From NCBI GenBank assembly GCA_929200535.1, contig CAKMZV010000019.1:1-44893 (forward strand): a DNA stretch of 44,893 bases, written 5' to 3'. Both the position numbers and the translations under genes were made by a program. Positions 7,310-14,039 of this stretch are shown here, piece after piece (positions within the stretch are counted from its first letter, which is position 1; each line of letters opens with the position of its first letter). Below the pieces are notes generated by a model. It worked only from the letters and a program-made list of their open reading frames with translations, did no database searches and was not told the origin of the DNA. The DNA is from an uncultured Gammaproteobacteria bacterium. GTDB lineage: Bacteria; Pseudomonadota; Gammaproteobacteria; CAKMZV01.

Positions 7310-8053
7310 ATGGCTTATTTAGAGGAAATAACAAGCTCTTATCAGAACGTCTGCAACAATAGTAGTTTAGCCCCCCAACAAATAAAAAAATCTCTGCAAT
7401 ATGAAAATTGGATAAATGCAAGCGATGAAATAACACGTCAAATCACTAAACACAAAAATTACTCAAAAATTAATGCCAATATATTATTTCCATTGGAAAA
7501 TGCCTCGCTTAATAGCATAACCTTTCCACCTGAAATAAAAAAAACGATAAAGCAGTGCTATCATTTATGTCGAATCAGAATAGCCGCTAAAGAGTACGAC
7601 ATAGGAGATTTACATTCTGATGACTTACTTGAATTCTACCAAGAATCTATTAATAAGAGAAAACCTTTAATTGGAATATGGGTTTTTGTAGAGCAACAAT
7701 GCTTAGAAAGTGGCAATGATTTGTTTAATCTAATCAACTTATTGGGCTTATATCACTGGTATGAGCTATCTTTTGAAACTCTGTACGTAATGTGGAAAAT
7801 CGATAATCTAAAATGTCGCAAACCAAATATATTGGATGCTGGATTAGCTTTTTATTTCCAACAACAACCTAAAGGGGAAACTGGAAAGACTCGCAATTTA
7901 ACAACAGGGGAACTTGGTATTGAAGAATGGATTTCTGTAGAAAATCCAACCAATCCCACTCCCACAAAAGCAATAGCCTTACAGGCAAAACAACAATTAA
8001 ACAAAGACATTTTTTTTAAAACCAATGCAAAAAGAATCCAAAAAACAAAGTAA
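7310..8053 (+). CDS. Protein of unknown function, gene 1 of the methyltransferase/ATPase cassette
   Basis: I do not recognise this 247-residue protein. It is soluble, with no signal peptide or membrane span, and looks mixed helical. The N-terminal 80 residues (EITSSYQNVCNNSSLAPQQI onward) are polar. A helical middle contains CYHLCRIRIAAKEYDIGDLH and WVFVEQQCLESGNDLFNLIN. The C-terminal 60 residues are rich in Thr, Pro and Lys (QPKGETGKTRNLTTGELGIE) and could be flexible. No ATP-binding, nuclease or helix-turn-helix motif is visible. It is the first gene of a five-gene plus-strand run, and its last 29 bases overlap the start of gene 2, which points to coupled translation. An effector-adaptor or sensor role would be a guess. 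Confidence 0.75.
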   Translation: MAYLEEITSSYQNVCNNSSLAPQQIKKSLQYENWINASDEITRQITKHKNYSKINANILFPLENASLNSITFPPEIKKTIKQCYHLCRIRIAAKEYDIGDLHSDDLLEFYQESINKRKPLIGIWVFVEQQCLESGNDLFNLINLLGLYHWYELSFETLYVMWKIDNLKCRKPNILDAGLAFYFQQQPKGETGKTRNLTTGELGIEEWISVENPTNPTPTKAIALQAKQQLNKDIFFKTNAKRIQKTK

Positions 8054-9065
8054 TGATAAGCTGAGTGTGGAAAATATTATACACACGCACTTTAACGAGC
8101 AGAAACAAGCTGACAAATACGTGCTAAATCGCTTGCAACACCAATTTGATAAGGCACCACCTACTTTGGTTCACCGACATATGGAGCAATATGCAACTGA
8201 TATTCTTGAACAAATTTCAGTTAAAATAGAAGATAAAAAAAGAATTAGTATTGCTTGCTTGGAGGCTTTGAAAAAGCTATCAAAACCACAAAAATCGTAT
8301 TCCCTGAAAAATTTAATCGCCCTATCAGAGTTATCTTATTTTGTCTTGCAGCTTGCTAAAAATAACCCTAATGCCTATTTCAATGCAGAGCAAAAAAAAG
8401 AATGGGCGAAAGAACTATCCAACCTAAATTTGGAAGAAGAGACAATTTCAACTAATAAGGATAAAAACAATCGCCTCAAAAACCTTATAGAAGTCGTATA
8501 TATTTTTGAAATTCTATTATCAGTTAAATTGTCATTTAACTGGGATAACTTACGTAACAAAATTTGCGAATTTCACGAAAATGCTGACGAATATATCCTT
8601 GAATTGCTATTTATGGCTTGCCAATATACGACTAATTGGAACCAAGAAAGTATGTCGATTTTATTGGAATGGTCAACAGAACAGAAGAAGCTACCCAATA
8701 ATTTTTATGAGCAATTTTTTCTAAATTATTTACTAAAGTGCAAACGAGAAACATCAGAAGCCAATAAAACAAAACAAAATGATTTTATTACCCATATTTT
8801 AACAAGCAGCCGTTTTTTTAACACATTAGACAAGCAGAAAAAAACAATTTTATGCGAATCATTGTTAAAGGCGAGCCGACTATTTGAATCAAAAAGTTTT
8901 AAAATTTTAAACGATGAGAGAATAAAATATCTCGAAAACACATTAGAAAAATGGAAAAAATCCACACAAGAAAAAGTACACATAGAAACTAGCGAAACTA
9001 ATAACGACTTAATGCAGAAAACCTACAGTAAATTCTCACCATCAACAACGTCTGCTGTCACTTAA
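8025..9065 (+). CDS. Helical protein of unknown function, gene 2 of the cassette
   Basis: A 346-residue soluble protein that appears almost entirely alpha-helical, with many Lys, Asn, Glu and Leu residues and heptad-like stretches (for example LEACLEAL-type spacing near residues 70-110 and LENTLEKWKKSTQEKVHIET near the C-terminus). No catalytic motif is recognised. It starts inside gene 1 (29-base overlap, ATG at 8025), and the ATPase gene begins 12 bases after its stop. The repeated helical texture could form a scaffold, as in HEAT-like or TPR-like proteins, but I cannot identify a repeat unit. The C-terminal 30 residues are Ser/Thr-rich and probably disordered. Confidence 0.75.
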   Translation: MQKESKKQSNDKLSVENIIHTHFNEQKQADKYVLNRLQHQFDKAPPTLVHRHMEQYATDILEQISVKIEDKKRISIACLEALKKLSKPQKSYSLKNLIALSELSYFVLQLAKNNPNAYFNAEQKKEWAKELSNLNLEEETISTNKDKNNRLKNLIEVVYIFEILLSVKLSFNWDNLRNKICEFHENADEYILELLFMACQYTTNWNQESMSILLEWSTEQKKLPNNFYEQFFLNYLLKCKRETSEANKTKQNDFITHILTSSRFFNTLDKQKKTILCESLLKASRLFESKSFKILNDERIKYLENTLEKWKKSTQEKVHIETSETNNDLMQKTYSKFSPSTTSAVT

Positions 9066-9077
9066 AACTCTTAAAAT

Positions 9078-11918
9078 ATGCCTTCCCTAAATACCCAATT
9101 CATTTGCTTTTACTCTTATAAAGGTGGTGTCGGACGTAGTACAGCACTCACCAATTTGGCAATATTGCATGCCCGCCAAGGGAAGAAAGTGCTAATTATT
9201 GATTTAGATTTAGAGGCGCCGGGGCAATCACAAAGCGGATTATTTAATGCTCAATACATACAAGAGGCAAAAACACTAAAGGGTGGCTTTACCGATTTAT
9301 GCCTTGAATGGCAAAAAAGTTTTAAGGAAAACAAGGCCGCTTTAGCTTGGCAACTAAAAGATTATACAGTGCGTAGCACAGAGCTTGATGATCGAACTTT
9401 CGAAGGCGTTGGGGATATTTACTTACTACCAGCAACTAAACAGCTTGATAATCAGTACGCTCAAACATTACATCAACTCAACTGGGATGATTTTTTTGGT
9501 GATTCCATCAAAGGTTATTTGTTAATGGCAGACATCCGCACCTATTGCGAACTTGAGGAATATGATAGTGTATTTATTGACTCGCGCACAGGCTTAAGTG
9601 ACCCCTACTATATGGCAACTTCTTGGCTAACTGATAGCACAGTATGTTTCACCTTATTAAATGAACAAAGCATCGCTGGCTGCAAAGGGGCAATGAATGC
9701 GATTAATTCACCTTCCTTTATTAAAGGTTATGGCAAAAAGCATATTGTGCCAGTGGCTTGTATGCTCCCTCCCTCACTGGGAGAAAGCGTCCAAAAAAGA
9801 ATAAATGAAATTAAGGATAAGGAATGGTTAGAGCTAAACGAACAGGGCTTTGCCTCAACTATTTTATACGATGAAACAATGGCATTAAGAGCAACTTTGC
9901 CATTACTTAATGCAGATAATAATATGAGCCTTAATATCAATTCCTACACGCAATCCATCATACAAATAGATGAAGCTTTGGATAAAAAAGACACAGACTA
10001 CTTATTAACGAAACAACGAGTAAAACAAAGCTACAAAGGAGAATTAGAAAACCCTTTTCCTAATTTACGCATTGAATACTGCAATGCTAAAGAAGTTGAA
10101 AAATATTACTCTAACTTATACCCAAGCATTCGAGAACAGCTTCTTGCTTTTCCACCAATCATTATTTTTGGTTCTCGTGGTACTGGCAAAACCACCCTTG
10201 CTCGACATCTGGACTATGAAACTCAATTAGTACAATTTGCTAAAGAAAACCCAAATCAAGAACCTATACCTGAGCATTTCCCTCAAGTGGTGCTATGGAT
10301 ACGACAAGATAGCGATCTTTTAGCTGCATTTAATACCCCAGATGCATATAAGCAAGTTATCTATAACCAGCTATTTAGTGCCTTTTTAGATTTAATGGTG
10401 TTGCGAAAAATGTTGGAAGCAATGGATAAAATTGAGGGCATACAAGCCTGGGTGAATTCTACCACTAAACTCTTTAAAATCCTTAGCAGAGAAATGGGGA
10501 GAAAAGAGGGCGAGCCATTAAATAATCTTGAACAATTCAGTAACTATTTAGACGAATATTTGTCTGACATTCGCGGCTATATAAATAATCCAAATGATAG
10601 CAATAAGCCCTATATGTTTTTAAGCAACACTCTACTTAAGCTATTAACTGAGCAATTTAAACCGGAAATTCAATCTTATTTTGTGGTAATTTTAGATGAA
10701 GTTGAAAACTACGCCAGCTACCAACAACGCACTCTAAACACTCGAGTTAAGCATATTAAGCGTAGTAACTTAGTCACTTATAAATTATTAGCACGCAATG
10801 AGGGAATTAAAACATCAAAAACCGATGCAACAGGTCAATTATTAGAAGTTACTCACGACTATAAGGCTTATTTTTTAGATGAGGCGATGAACTTTCAAGA
10901 ATTTCATGATCAAGTAAATACATTTATACACCACAGCCTACAACAATCGCCGAGTTTCTCACATTTTGGAGAAGCCAAAACTTTTTTAAATGCTCTGACA
11001 CCACAAGAAGAAGCACAAGAAATGTTTGAAACAAGAAGGCAAACAACACACCCCCCCCCCTTAGTCTCTTATGTTAAAAAAGAGCTAAAACTTCCCTCAG
11101 AACATCCTTTTTTACAATGGCTTGACCAAGAGCAAAACATATTGCGTCAGGCAGTAGCAGTAATCCTTCTCAATCAAGGAAAGGAAATTGAACAAGTGCT
11201 TAATGAGTTTAGCAAAAATAGTTCAAAGGCTAAAGACTGGTATCATAATTATTCCACAGGAGCATTATTTTGGTTATGCCGATTGTACAACAAAAATAAA
11301 ATATATGCAGGTATCAATGATTTGGTAGGAGTTTCCGGCAATAATATTCGTGTCGTGGTACTCATATTAGGGCAGCTGTTTCAAGAGTGGATTGAAAATA
11401 AAGATACAGGTACCTTATTTTTTTCAGTCAAACAGCAAAATAAAGTCATACACGAACAATCACAAACACAAGTCAAACTACTCGATCGCTTTAAATTTAC
11501 TGACAATCGATTAGACCGCTTTGTAGCTCGCTTAGGGACTCTATTTAGGGCACTCCATAAGAGTCCTAAACAAAGTGAGCCAGAGATTAACCATTTTTCA
11601 ATTCAAGGGGATGTGGATGAAAAAATAGATAAGTATTTACGCCTATGCCGACAAGAAAATATACTACAATGGATGCCCAGTAACAAACAAAAAAATAGTA
11701 GTGATTATGTACCCGATGCTTATCGCTTTAATCCTGTATATGCTCCTGATTTTGATATTTCTTGGCGGCGTAAGAAAAAATTAATTCTAACGTCTAAACA
11801 AATTGAAATACTTTGTTTTGGGCAGGATAATGAGTGGAAAACTATACATAAAAATATAGTAAAAAAACACGACTCTTCAAATATTCCATCAGTTGATCAA
11901 CAACCTACTTTACTGTAA
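9078..11918 (+). CDS. Fusion of a KGGVGR-type ParA-like ATPase with an RGTGKT AAA ATPase, gene 3 of the cassette
   Basis: This 946-residue protein joins two P-loop modules. Residues 1 to about 300 resemble ParA/MinD ATPases: FYSYKGGVGRSTALTNLA (K15 signature lysine, but R20 where the usual Walker lysine stands), then IIDLDLEAPGQS (D42, D44) and VFIDSRTGLSDPYY near residue 168. From about 325 a second module starts with NAKEVEKYY and has Walker A GSRGTGKT (365-372) and Walker B VVILDEVENY (D540, E541), resembling ORC/Cdc6-like or STAND-like bacterial ATPases. The C-terminal 280 residues include helical stretches of the winged-helix style, but no named domain. A run of ten C at 11051-11060 lies in codons 658-661. 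The family is one I associate with bacterial conflict genes; that role here is inferred from the neighbouring methyltransferase. Confidence 0.85.
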   Translation: MPSLNTQFICFYSYKGGVGRSTALTNLAILHARQGKKVLIIDLDLEAPGQSQSGLFNAQYIQEAKTLKGGFTDLCLEWQKSFKENKAALAWQLKDYTVRSTELDDRTFEGVGDIYLLPATKQLDNQYAQTLHQLNWDDFFGDSIKGYLLMADIRTYCELEEYDSVFIDSRTGLSDPYYMATSWLTDSTVCFTLLNEQSIAGCKGAMNAINSPSFIKGYGKKHIVPVACMLPPSLGESVQKRINEIKDKEWLELNEQGFASTILYDETMALRATLPLLNADNNMSLNINSYTQSIIQIDEALDKKDTDYLLTKQRVKQSYKGELENPFPNLRIEYCNAKEVEKYYSNLYPSIREQLLAFPPIIIFGSRGTGKTTLARHLDYETQLVQFAKENPNQEPIPEHFPQVVLWIRQDSDLLAAFNTPDAYKQVIYNQLFSAFLDLMVLRKMLEAMDKIEGIQAWVNSTTKLFKILSREMGRKEGEPLNNLEQFSNYLDEYLSDIRGYINNPNDSNKPYMFLSNTLLKLLTEQFKPEIQSYFVVILDEVENYASYQQRTLNTRVKHIKRSNLVTYKLLARNEGIKTSKTDATGQLLEVTHDYKAYFLDEAMNFQEFHDQVNTFIHHSLQQSPSFSHFGEAKTFLNALTPQEEAQEMFETRRQTTHPPPLVSYVKKELKLPSEHPFLQWLDQEQNILRQAVAVILLNQGKEIEQVLNEFSKNSSKAKDWYHNYSTGALFWLCRLYNKNKIYAGINDLVGVSGNNIRVVVLILGQLFQEWIENKDTGTLFFSVKQQNKVIHEQSQTQVKLLDRFKFTDNRLDRFVARLGTLFRALHKSPKQSEPEINHFSIQGDVDEKIDKYLRLCRQENILQWMPSNKQKNSSDYVPDAYRFNPVYAPDFDISWRRKKKLILTSKQIEILCFGQDNEWKTIHKNIVKKHDSSNIPSVDQQPTLL
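11051..11060 (+). repeat. Ten-base poly-C tract within the cassette ATPase gene
   Basis: Ten consecutive C bases encode part of His658 and Pro659-661. In this AT-rich window no other C or G run that I see exceeds about six. Loss of one C would bring a TAG stop directly after the prolines (about residue 662). Gain of one C would bring a TAA stop about five codons further on. Both slips would remove the last 280 residues, as expected of a phase-variable switch. Confidence 0.8.
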
Positions 11919-11919
11919 A

Positions 11920-12858
11920 ATGCAGACTATTACTGAGTATAGCCCCACAGCAGAAAAACATAGAAAATTAGCAAACTTGCATCCGTGGGATATTTTATTG
12001 ACTGGTGATAATAATGAATATAGGTGTACGCATACAATTAAACAATTGAAACAACATATGCAGCCTTTTCAGTATATACAACTTAGCCGAGAAAAAAATC
12101 AAGGCGGTAATGGGCAGTTTATACTTAAGTCGATAGATTGTCCGAATAAATACGAAGAAAAATGCTCTGCTCAACTGCTTAATTTAAAATTAACTACATT
12201 AATCGAAAACTGTTCTCAAAAATCAACAAATATTCATATTCTTATGGATATTACTAGCTTAGAATTAGATGCTATTTTACATATCCAACATATTTGCCAA
12301 CAAGAAAAATATCGATTATTTGCCTTATACACCTCGCCTGCAAAATATAAGGAACGAAAAAAATTCAAACTTCAATTAAACACAATTGCACAACCTCCGG
12401 GTTACACAAGTTTAACCGTAAATAGCACCTCCCCTATTCCTCATATTATTATTTTAGGTTTCGATTCTGGCAGAGCTGAACGCTTTTTGACACAGTATCC
12501 TCAGTGGCAATTTGAAGATATATTTGCTATTTATAGTAGCCCAGCCTACATTAAAGATGGGGAGAGAATGGCACTAAATGCTAACTCTTGGATAGATAGT
12601 ATTCCTGAAAAACAACGACTATCAATTGACGGTCTTAACCCTTCAGGCGTGTACCAACAATTACAAAAAATTTATACCGAAAAAAAGAGGATGGATATAG
12701 TCCCTTTAGGACCTAAATTAATGCTACTTGGTATTACAGAATTTTATTTTTCATTGCCCAAAAATGAACAAAAAAATATACGTATTTTATATGATTTCCC
12801 ACAGCCAACACCAGGTAGCACAACAGGAATCAAAAAACATTATTTATTAGAATGTTAA
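11920..12858 (+). CDS. Two-lobed protein of unknown function, gene 4 of the cassette
   Basis: About 312 residues from the ATG at 11920, one base after the stop of the ATPase gene; an upstream TTG at 11893 would overlap that gene and is less likely. I recognise no family. The protein contains two similar segments: YRLFALYTSPAKYKERKKF (F134) and DIFAIYSSPAYIKDGERMA (F202), each at the end of a hydrophobic strand. The region before the first is ILMDITSLELDAILHIQHIC and before the second PHIIILGFDSGRAERFLTQY. This alternation of short hydrophobic strands and helices suggests a duplicated Rossmann-like fold. Near the end, MDIVPLGPKLMLLGITEFYF could be another strand and helix. A ligand- or nucleotide-sensing role is possible but not shown. 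The end overlaps the methyltransferase start by seven bases. Confidence 0.75.
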   Translation: MQTITEYSPTAEKHRKLANLHPWDILLTGDNNEYRCTHTIKQLKQHMQPFQYIQLSREKNQGGNGQFILKSIDCPNKYEEKCSAQLLNLKLTTLIENCSQKSTNIHILMDITSLELDAILHIQHICQQEKYRLFALYTSPAKYKERKKFKLQLNTIAQPPGYTSLTVNSTSPIPHIIILGFDSGRAERFLTQYPQWQFEDIFAIYSSPAYIKDGERMALNANSWIDSIPEKQRLSIDGLNPSGVYQQLQKIYTEKKRMDIVPLGPKLMLLGITEFYFSLPKNEQKNIRILYDFPQPTPGSTTGIKKHYLLEC

Positions 12859-14039
12859 ATAACTTAGCACAACATTACACACACCATATCCACGCTGATT
12901 TATTAGTCAAGCAAATGGGACGCTATGTTGAACATACAAAATTGCTATCTGGCATTGATTTAGGCGCAGGAAAGGGCGTACTACTTGATGCCGCACTAAA
13001 AAAGTGGGAACAGATTAAATTTTCAGGGATTGATGTGGATTTAGACAAAAACAATCATTCTGATGCCAACAGAGTGGCTTTTTTTTCTGCGGATTTATTG
13101 ACCGATAAATCAGTCGATTTTTTAGAACATCAAAAACTTATTGATTGTTGTGATATTGCTGTTTGCAACCCTCCTTTTCAGAGCTTTCAAAACAATCAAC
13201 TATTCCGTAACTTATGCAAAATTAATAAATTTGAGGCTTGTTATAATATGCCTGTTGTAACCACAGATATTATTTTTCTATTACATAATTTACGTTTATT
13301 AAAGCCAGGTGGCTTATTAGGCATTATCCTACCTGATGGAATTTTAACAGGAAAACGCTTTCAAATACTACGCAAAAGCTTGTTGGAGACACACAACATT
13401 AAAGAAATAATTCAACTGCCAGATAAAGCCTTTTCGAGAATTGAAGTTAGAACTCATATGATTATTTTGCAAAAAAGCGTCTTGCAATCAAATAAGATTG
13501 AATTAAGGCAAGTAAATAATGAGGGGAAACTCAGCAAAAAACTAACGATTAATGATGTTCAATTAGAAAAACGAATGGATTATTCCTATTGGAAATGGCA
13601 ACTACAACAGCAGATAAAAAAAAACACCATAAAATTATCAGACTTAAATGTTGAAGTATTGCGTGGCAGTCAAACAAAATATTTTTTTGAACAACAAAAC
13701 ACACCTTATTTTCATACACAACATTTACCAACATCGCCTAAAAAAATAAGTTTCTCAATCTCCAAAGCATCAAATGTCAGAAAAGCGAAAAAGGGAGATA
13801 TTTTAATGGCACGAGTAGGTAAACGTTGCTTAGGGCGTATGACATTGGTTTGCAATGGGTCAGTTCCTATTACAGATTGTATTTACCGTATTCGAGTTCC
13901 TCAAAAACATTTAAATATTATTTGGAAATCACTCTCTTCAAGATTAGGTCAAGAATGGCTCAAAGCAAATGGACATGGCTCTTGTGCTCAAGTAATCAGC
14001 AAGAGTGATTTAATGGATTTTCCGATTCAAGGTTTTTAG
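12852..14039 (+). CDS. Adenine-type DNA methyltransferase with a single target-recognition-like domain, gene 5 of the cassette
   Basis: A 395-residue protein. The N-terminal 230 residues are an HsdM-like N6-adenine methyltransferase: SAM motif GIDLGAGKGVLLDAA (34-48), acidic SGIDVDLDKN, catalytic NPPF (106-109), and LRLLKPGGLLGIILPDGIL. From about residue 250 the sequence resembles one target-recognition half of a type I specificity subunit: VEVLRGSQTKY, then KKGDILMARVGKRCLGRMTL, PITDCIYRIRVP, and HGSCAQVISKSDLMDFPI. Methyltransferase and recognition module are therefore in one chain, but it is shorter than type IIG enzymes and has no nuclease motif. No restriction subunit is adjacent. It probably marks host DNA so that the ATPase-containing partner proteins can tell self from foreign; the second half of that sentence is inference. 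Confidence 0.85.
   Translation: MLNNLAQHYTHHIHADLLVKQMGRYVEHTKLLSGIDLGAGKGVLLDAALKKWEQIKFSGIDVDLDKNNHSDANRVAFFSADLLTDKSVDFLEHQKLIDCCDIAVCNPPFQSFQNNQLFRNLCKINKFEACYNMPVVTTDIIFLLHNLRLLKPGGLLGIILPDGILTGKRFQILRKSLLETHNIKEIIQLPDKAFSRIEVRTHMIILQKSVLQSNKIELRQVNNEGKLSKKLTINDVQLEKRMDYSYWKWQLQQQIKKNTIKLSDLNVEVLRGSQTKYFFEQQNTPYFHTQHLPTSPKKISFSISKASNVRKAKKGDILMARVGKRCLGRMTLVCNGSVPITDCIYRIRVPQKHLNIIWKSLSSRLGQEWLKANGHGSCAQVISKSDLMDFPIQGF

What the first reader, a model, noticed from the sequence alone, without database searches (positions are those of the whole stretch)
7310..14039. Unnamed five-gene cassette joining a DNA methyltransferase to a ParA-AAA fusion ATPase
Five plus-strand genes run without gaps (overlaps of 29 and 7 bases, spacings of 12 and 1 base) between unrelated core genes. 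Seen: a KGGVGR plus RGTGKT ATPase, an NPPF methyltransferase with a recognition-like C-terminus, and three proteins I cannot place. Known: methyltransferase plus large ATPase plus unknown partners is the layout of BREX, DISARM and type I restriction, but none of their hallmark genes (pglZ, brxC, drmA/B, hsdR) are here. Inference: a self-marking antiviral or anti-plasmid system of a type I cannot name.
Basis: partly seen in the sequence, partly recalled or inferred. Interest (0 to 1): 0.88.

Follow-up and report, generated by a model that had tools for sequence, protein, structure and literature searches.

The report
Variant methylase–CARF–ORC ATPase defence cassette
Five tightly packed genes form a variant of a widespread but little-studied bacterial system, probably antiviral, that pairs a DNA-marking enzyme with an initiator-like ATPase and a nucleotide-sensor protein; here the usual enzymatic effector is missing and two unrecognised proteins and an extra ParA-type motor stand in its place.

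Summary
The five genes are real, intact and packed as described. They are not unrelated strangers. Gene 3 is a KGGVGR (MinD/ParA-like) ATPase fused to the Pfam ORC-CDC6-like ATPase family. Gene 4 belongs to the CARF6 family. Gene 5 is an N6-adenine methyltransferase with one HsdS-like recognition half. About 30 loci from Pseudomonadota, Bacteroidota, Thermodesulfobacteriota and Planctomycetota, plus about 130 Klebsiella plasmids, carry the same trio with a fourth gene, PRTase-CE, usually directly before the ATPase. One locus has HD-CE there, and two have a kinase-fused ATPase. The window lacks these effectors; genes 1 and 2, families without a hit in any library, hold that place and a KGGVGR domain is fused to the ATPase. 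The complete five-gene set, in the same order, recurs once, in a Nitrospirales genome at 29–52% protein identity, directly before a type III restriction–modification pair. So the cassette is a conserved unit and a new variant of a known but uncharacterised conflict system. Best reading: methylation-licensed surveillance that triggers a cell-level block, with genes 1 and 2 as the alternative effector module. Effector chemistry is unknown; nothing has been tested at the bench.

The parts
7310..8053 (+). gene 1, 247 aa, unrecognised family; C-terminal signature KPNxLDAGLAFYFxQxP...TRxLxTGE..EEW shared with the Nitrospirales copy; candidate effector/partner
   Evidence: No Pfam, PADLOC, NCBIfam, PHROG or significant PDB hit; 36% identical homologue at L058:5291-6025 only; fold not predictable, pLDDT 34
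8025..9065 (+). gene 2, 346 aa, unrecognised all-helical (solenoid-like) protein; candidate effector/adaptor
   Evidence: No significant family hit; 29% identical homologue at L058:6033-7037 only; low-confidence all-alpha model, pLDDT 55, no significant PDB fold match
9078..11918 (+). gene 3, 946 aa: N-terminal KGGVGR MinD/ParA-like ATPase (about residues 6-271) fused to an ORC-CDC6-like AAA+ ATPase (residues 325-903)
   Evidence: NF047398 E=1.1e-37 above cut-off; PF24389 E=3.2e-79; Walker A/B and most columns invariant in the family retained
11920..12858 (+). gene 4, 312 aa: CARF6-family (two CARF-like halves) putative nucleotide-ligand sensor
   Evidence: PADLOC CARF6 models, best E=3.5e-18; homologous to the CARF6 genes of the plasmid and genomic systems
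12852..14039 (+). gene 5, 395 aa: N6-adenine DNA methyltransferase with one HsdS-like target-recognition half
   Evidence: PF02384 E=1e-16; PADLOC MTase_II E=4.5e-72 over residues 4-390; C-terminus resembles MAD5, an HsdS-like subunit, E=2e-7, below that model's cut-off; NPPF and SAM-binding motif intact

Best explanation
A methylation-licensed defence (conflict) system of the ORC-CDC6-like/CARF6/methyltransferase kind, in an effector-swapped variant. Proposed working: gene 5 methylates adenine at its target site and so marks host DNA. The ORC-CDC6-like AAA+ part of gene 3, which keeps the initiator-type Walker motifs and a basic C-terminus, loads on DNA in an ATP-dependent way and tells marked from unmarked (incoming phage or plasmid) DNA. 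The CARF6 protein, gene 4, binds a nucleotide ligand that permits or tunes activation. Genes 1 and 2, together with the KGGVGR switch fused to the ATPase, do the job that PRTase-CE, HD-CE, a kinase or HEPN does in sister systems: they stop infection, probably by a cell-level block (abortive infection or growth arrest) rather than by cutting DNA, because no nuclease family is recognisable. Shown: domain identities, intact motifs, conserved gene set, effector replacement, sporadic and mobile distribution. Inferred: self/non-self discrimination by methylation, the ligand, the trigger and the effector role of genes 1 and 2.
For: Gene identities. The core trio ATPase-CARF6-MTase with PRTase-CE (PF24390) is in nearly all 35 loci found with the ATPase profile and on Klebsiella, Enterobacter and Moraxella plasmids. 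The PRTase-CE position is swappable: HD-CE (PF24391) in L028, protein-kinase-fused ATPase in L029/L030; an additional ORC-CDC6-like ATPase plus a gene with a HEPN-like RxxxxH motif stands beside the system in L042/L048/L059/L061. All five genes recur in order in L058, followed by type III mod and res genes. Window and L058 form one clade in ATPase, CARF and MTase trees. Most family-invariant residues kept. Sporadic: PF24389 over cut-off in 9 of 369 genomes of the class.
Against: No functional test is known to me for this variant, and none for the PRTase-CE type was found in the held literature. Genes 1 and 2 could not be modelled or assigned. The window cassette sits among housekeeping genes, not in a visible defence island. 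Only two instances of the five-gene form are known.
Confidence: 0.55

Rival explanations
1. The cassette is an ancillary effector module of the host's type III CRISPR system: cyclic oligoadenylate made by Cas10 binds the CARF6 protein, which switches on gene 3 and genes 1 and 2; the methyltransferase protects host DNA.
For: Gene 4 is CARF6-family. The same genome carries a type III-B locus with Cmr proteins, a Cas10/Cmr2 with a GGED palm motif, a Cas6-RT-Cas1-like fusion and a 14-unit repeat array. PADLOC names the homologous PRTase family PRTase_III-A.
Against: The cassette is on another contig. The sister system sits on Klebsiella plasmids, in hosts that from general knowledge usually lack type III CRISPR. 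Co-occurrence with Cas10 was not tested across the loci. GGED instead of GGDD may impair the cyclase.
Confidence: 0.15
2. A self-maintenance (addiction-like) or anti-plasmid module: loss of methylation after loss of the locus, or an incoming competing replicon, triggers the effector; ParA and ORC-like parts sense replicon copy or replication.
For: Sister systems are common on conjugative plasmids, one of them close to repA; an initiator-like ATPase and a ParA-like domain suit sensing of replicons.
Against: The window and L058 copies are chromosomal, with no ParB or replication gene beside them; restriction-modification systems also sit on plasmids, so location does not separate this from defence.
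Confidence: 0.2
3. The methyltransferase serves epigenetic regulation and the other four genes are accessory or unrelated cargo that happen to lie together.
For: The methyltransferase is sometimes on the opposite strand (L052, L056, L057, L059-L061) and its tree differs from that of the ATPase, so it is partly separable.
Against: ATPase-CARF6 adjacency is kept in essentially every locus, and the whole five-gene order is kept between a gammaproteobacterium and Nitrospirota at 29-52% identity.
Confidence: 0.1

Closest known systems
PRTase-CE / ORC-CDC6-like / CARF6 / N6-methyltransferase four-gene systems (Pfam PF24390, PF24389; PADLOC CARF6 and PRTase_III-A models), e.g. Klebsiella plasmid pKPHS2
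   Same: Homologous ORC-CDC6-like ATPase, CARF6 protein and methyltransferase with half an HsdS; same operon logic; ATPase-CARF6 order identical; methyltransferase first, last or on the other strand
   Different: The window has no PRTase-CE; genes 1 and 2 stand in its place; a KGGVGR ATPase domain is fused to the ATPase N-terminus
HD-CE and kinase-fused ORC-CDC6-like systems (L028; L029/L030)
   Same: Same ATPase family with a CARF-type or positionally equivalent downstream gene; show that the effector position is swappable
   Different: Effector is an HD phosphohydrolase or a fused Ser/Thr kinase; methyltransferase not found near L028, of another class in L029/L030
KGGVGR-motif ATPase operons (NF047398), e.g. 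inside a BREX-2 cluster or before a PLD helicase
   Same: Same deviant P-loop ATPase family, often directly beside a second P-loop ATPase gene
   Different: There the second ATPase is a separate gene of another family and the small upstream gene is unrelated to genes 1 and 2; no CARF6, no methyltransferase in the operon core
MADS (methylation-associated defence system)
   Same: N6 methyltransferase, HsdS-like recognition part and an ATPase distantly similar to Mad8
   Different: Hits to Mad2 and Mad5 lie far below the NCBIfam cut-offs; the rest of the gene set is absent; CARF6 is not, from general knowledge, part of MADS

Membership tests
PRTase-CE/ORC-CDC6-like/CARF6/MTase system | ORC-CDC6-like ATPase (PF24389) | tested here: met
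   E=3.2e-79 over almost the whole model
PRTase-CE/ORC-CDC6-like/CARF6/MTase system | CARF6-family gene directly downstream of the ATPase | tested here: met
   Gene 4, E=3.5e-18, 1 base after gene 3
PRTase-CE/ORC-CDC6-like/CARF6/MTase system | N6 methyltransferase of the gene-5 type | tested here: met
   27% identity over 393 residues to the plasmid MTase, E=5e-37
PRTase-CE/ORC-CDC6-like/CARF6/MTase system | PRTase-CE effector (PF24390) | tested here: not met
   No Pfam PRTase hit in genes 1 or 2 even at E 10; no alignment to PRTase-CE. Hence filed as a variant, not a member of the PRTase-CE type
BREX | PglZ and BrxC present | tested here: not met
   No such hit in Pfam, PADLOC or NCBIfam scans of the five proteins; PglX similarity of gene 5 far below cut-off
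DISARM | DrmA and DrmB present | tested here: not met
   No hit
Type I restriction-modification | HsdR and a full HsdS with two recognition domains | tested here: not met
   No HsdR; recognition half fused to the methyltransferase
MADS | Mad1-8 gene set | tested here: not met
   Only sub-threshold similarity to Mad2, Mad5 and Mad8
ParABS partition | ParB gene and parS sites beside ParA | tested here: not met
   No ParB family hit among the five genes; parS sites not searched
Type III CRISPR ancillary CARF effector | Linked to and activated by Cas10-made cyclic oligoadenylate | tested here: inconclusive
   Cas10 present in the genome on another contig; activation not testable here
Anti-phage defence system | Demonstrated protection against phage | not testable with these tools
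   No experiment possible; only indirect evidence (distribution, neighbours, domain content)

The most novel reading that the evidence does not exclude
A distinct subtype of methylation-licensed defence whose effector is a previously unseen two-protein module (genes 1 and 2) controlled by a double motor: a KGGVGR MinD/ParA-like switch fused in one chain to an ORC/Cdc6-like AAA+ ATPase and gated by a CARF sensor.
Probability: 0.4. Interest if true: 0.75.

Novelty: new variant of a known kind. Interest (0 to 1): 0.56.

Why it matters
The broader family is widespread, sits on clinically common Klebsiella plasmids, combines DNA marking, an initiator-like ATPase and a CARF sensor, and has, as far as the held literature shows, no worked-out mechanism. 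The window shows that its effector can be replaced wholesale by two proteins of unknown fold while the marking, sensing and ATPase core stays, which points to the core as the sensor and gives a direct test of what each part does.

Tried and rejected
BREX, DISARM, type I R-M and MADS filings rejected: hallmark genes absent or below cut-off. Gene 2 as a diverged PRTase-CE rejected: no alignment, no DDxxxSG motif, predicted all-helical. Genes 1 and 2 as a general KGGVGR accessory pair rejected as far as sampled: profiles hit nothing else in the KGGVGR loci fetched, viral-contig scans gave no relative, and gene 1 none in 446 genomes of two other phyla. Full-length gene 3 in 346 genomes of the Nitrospirales phylum and 399 of the window's phylum: only L058 and the window. 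Structure route for gene 1 failed (pLDDT 34); the weak gene 2 model gave no significant fold match. The first genome scan with gene 3 alone found nothing; the profile of its C-terminal part was needed. Papers on CARF classification and nucleotide-targeting effectors that probably discuss the core are not held. Base composition of the cassette is close to the window mean (GC 0.32-0.37 against 0.37), slightly A+T-richer, and gives no clear sign of recent import. Promoter and terminator scans of the cassette were at shuffle level and told nothing.

Full report
Observation. The five plus-strand frames are intact with the stated overlaps and gaps; gene 4 starts at ATG 11920. They lie between EamA transporters and 5-FTHF cyclo-ligase, both on the other strand.

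Identity of the parts. Gene 3 scores above cut-off for the KGGVGR-variant AAA ATPase (NF047398, 1.1e-37) and for the ORC-CDC6-like family (PF24389, 3.2e-79). Gene 4 matches PADLOC's CARF6 models (3.5e-18). Gene 5 matches N6_Mtase and, over residues 4-390, one PADLOC type II methyltransferase model (4.5e-72); its C-terminus resembles the HsdS-like MAD5, below that model's cut-off. Genes 1 and 2 have no match in PADLOC or NCBIfam, no significant match in Pfam or PHROGs, and nothing significant in the PDB.

The same core elsewhere. Protein searches of plasmids found homologues of genes 3 and 4 side by side on about 130 Klebsiella plasmids and on Enterobacter, Serratia and Moraxella plasmids. On pKPHS2 and two further plasmids examined the set is methyltransferase, PRTase-CE, ORC-CDC6-like ATPase and CARF6, with the methyltransferase last in Moraxella. 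A profile of the ATPase found 32 loci in named genomes and 3 in viral contigs. Apart from loci cut by contig ends and L058, they carry PRTase-CE before the ATPase and CARF6 after it, with the methyltransferase at one end or on the other strand. Most PRTase-CE proteins keep the PRPP-loop pattern DDxxxSG. The PRTase-CE position varies: HD-CE in L028, a protein kinase fused to the ATPase in L029 and L030. In L042, L048, L059 and L061 a second P-loop ATPase (ORC-CDC6-like at 1e-8 in L048 and just under the cut-off in L042) and a gene with a HEPN-like RxxxxH motif stand beside the system (the HEPN reading is by eye, Pfam gave no hit).

The window variant. No PRTase-CE, HD-CE or kinase is present. 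Genes 1 and 2 occupy the place and KGGVGR is fused to the ATPase. The only other instance found is L058, an uncultured Nitrospirales chromosome: gene 1 (8e-42), gene 2 (1e-35), KGGVGR-ORC ATPase (about 50% identity), CARF6 and methyltransferase in the same order, then a type III mod/res pair. Window and L058 are one fully supported clade in the ATPase, CARF and methyltransferase trees. Their branch is long in the first two trees and shorter in the methyltransferase tree, where they group with Bacteroidota copies. This is consistent with one origin of the variant, transfer between phyla and some exchange of methyltransferases. Residues invariant in the PRTase-type family are mostly retained in the window proteins, including both Walker motifs, the basic ISxRxKxK end of the ATPase, most CARF positions (one invariant K-P reads K-L) and the NPP of the methyltransferase.

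Frequency. Of 369 sampled genomes of the class, 9 have an ORC-CDC6-like protein over cut-off and 13 a KGGVGR protein over cut-off; the fusion was seen only in the window. In 399 genomes of the phylum and 346 of the Nitrospirales phylum no further fusion was seen beyond L058. It is rare and sporadic. The class is Gammaproteobacteria, inferred because a same-class genome (G142) has the contig length and content of an Arenicella record.

Mechanism. Shown: the domains, their intact motifs, the conserved linkage and the replacement of the effector. Inferred from knowledge of the families: the methyltransferase marks self; ORC/Cdc6-like AAA+ proteins load on DNA and oligomerise; CARF proteins are predicted to bind nucleotide-like ligands (PMC4012209); MinD/ParA-like domains, often predicted inactive, occur as effector parts or beside AP-ATPases in known conflict systems (PMC7159879). 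The most economical model is ATP-driven surveillance licensed by adenine methylation, with genes 1 and 2 as effector or effector plus adaptor. No nuclease family is seen, so a cell-level block is favoured over DNA cleavage, with the caution that gene 1 could hide an unrecognised enzyme.

Possible CRISPR link. The host genome has a type III-B locus on another contig: Cmr-type genes, Cas10 with a GGED motif, a Cas6-RT-Cas1-like fusion (assigned by reading the sequence) and 14 repeats. A CD-NTase (SMODS) was not found. This keeps open that gene 4 hears Cas10 signalling, but sister systems on Klebsiella plasmids argue for autonomy.

Verdict. A conserved, real unit; core known in domain catalogues; effector module and KGGVGR fusion new; function inferred.

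Noticed in passing
G000 contig C18, L148:131-12106: Type III-B CRISPR locus in the same genome: Cmr-type genes, Cas10/Cmr2 with GGED instead of GGDD, a 986-aa frame that reads as a Cas6-RT-Cas1 fusion, and a 14-unit repeat array (repeat GTTTCAATAGCGATTCTGCAGAACGCCTTACAAC); two neighbouring repeat-spacer units are identical.
   Followed up: partly
L148:3107-3991 (-): A 294-aa protein with apparent membrane stretches lies between the Cmr genes and the RT fusion; possibly an ancillary effector.
   Followed up: no
window:184-561 (+) and window:908-1744 (-): Two RhuM-family (PF13310) frames on opposite strands, the first only a fragment of the family; looks like a duplicated or decaying copy.
   Followed up: no
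L042:12134-14749, L048:4053-6825, L059:12059-14620, L061:12061-14621: A second ORC-like ATPase plus a small protein with a HEPN-like RHCxVHR motif sits beside the PRTase-CE system, as if two effector modules shared one methyltransferase.
   Followed up: partly
L099-L104, L112, L115, L116, L118: Recurrent three-gene unit: a small (about 125-200 aa) HEPN-like helical protein, a KGGVGR ATPase and a P-loop ATPase of about 490 aa, inside a BREX-2 cluster in L118 and before a PLD helicase in L099/L100.
   Followed up: partly
L011:4146-7009: Directly before the Moraxella PRTase-CE system lie a NACHT ATPase and a dUTPase-family gene, a possible nucleotide-targeting add-on.
   Followed up: no
L032:5321-7090: A stand-alone 589-aa KGGVGR ATPase lies just upstream of what reads as a flagellar gene cluster, a context that does not look like defence.
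   Followed up: no
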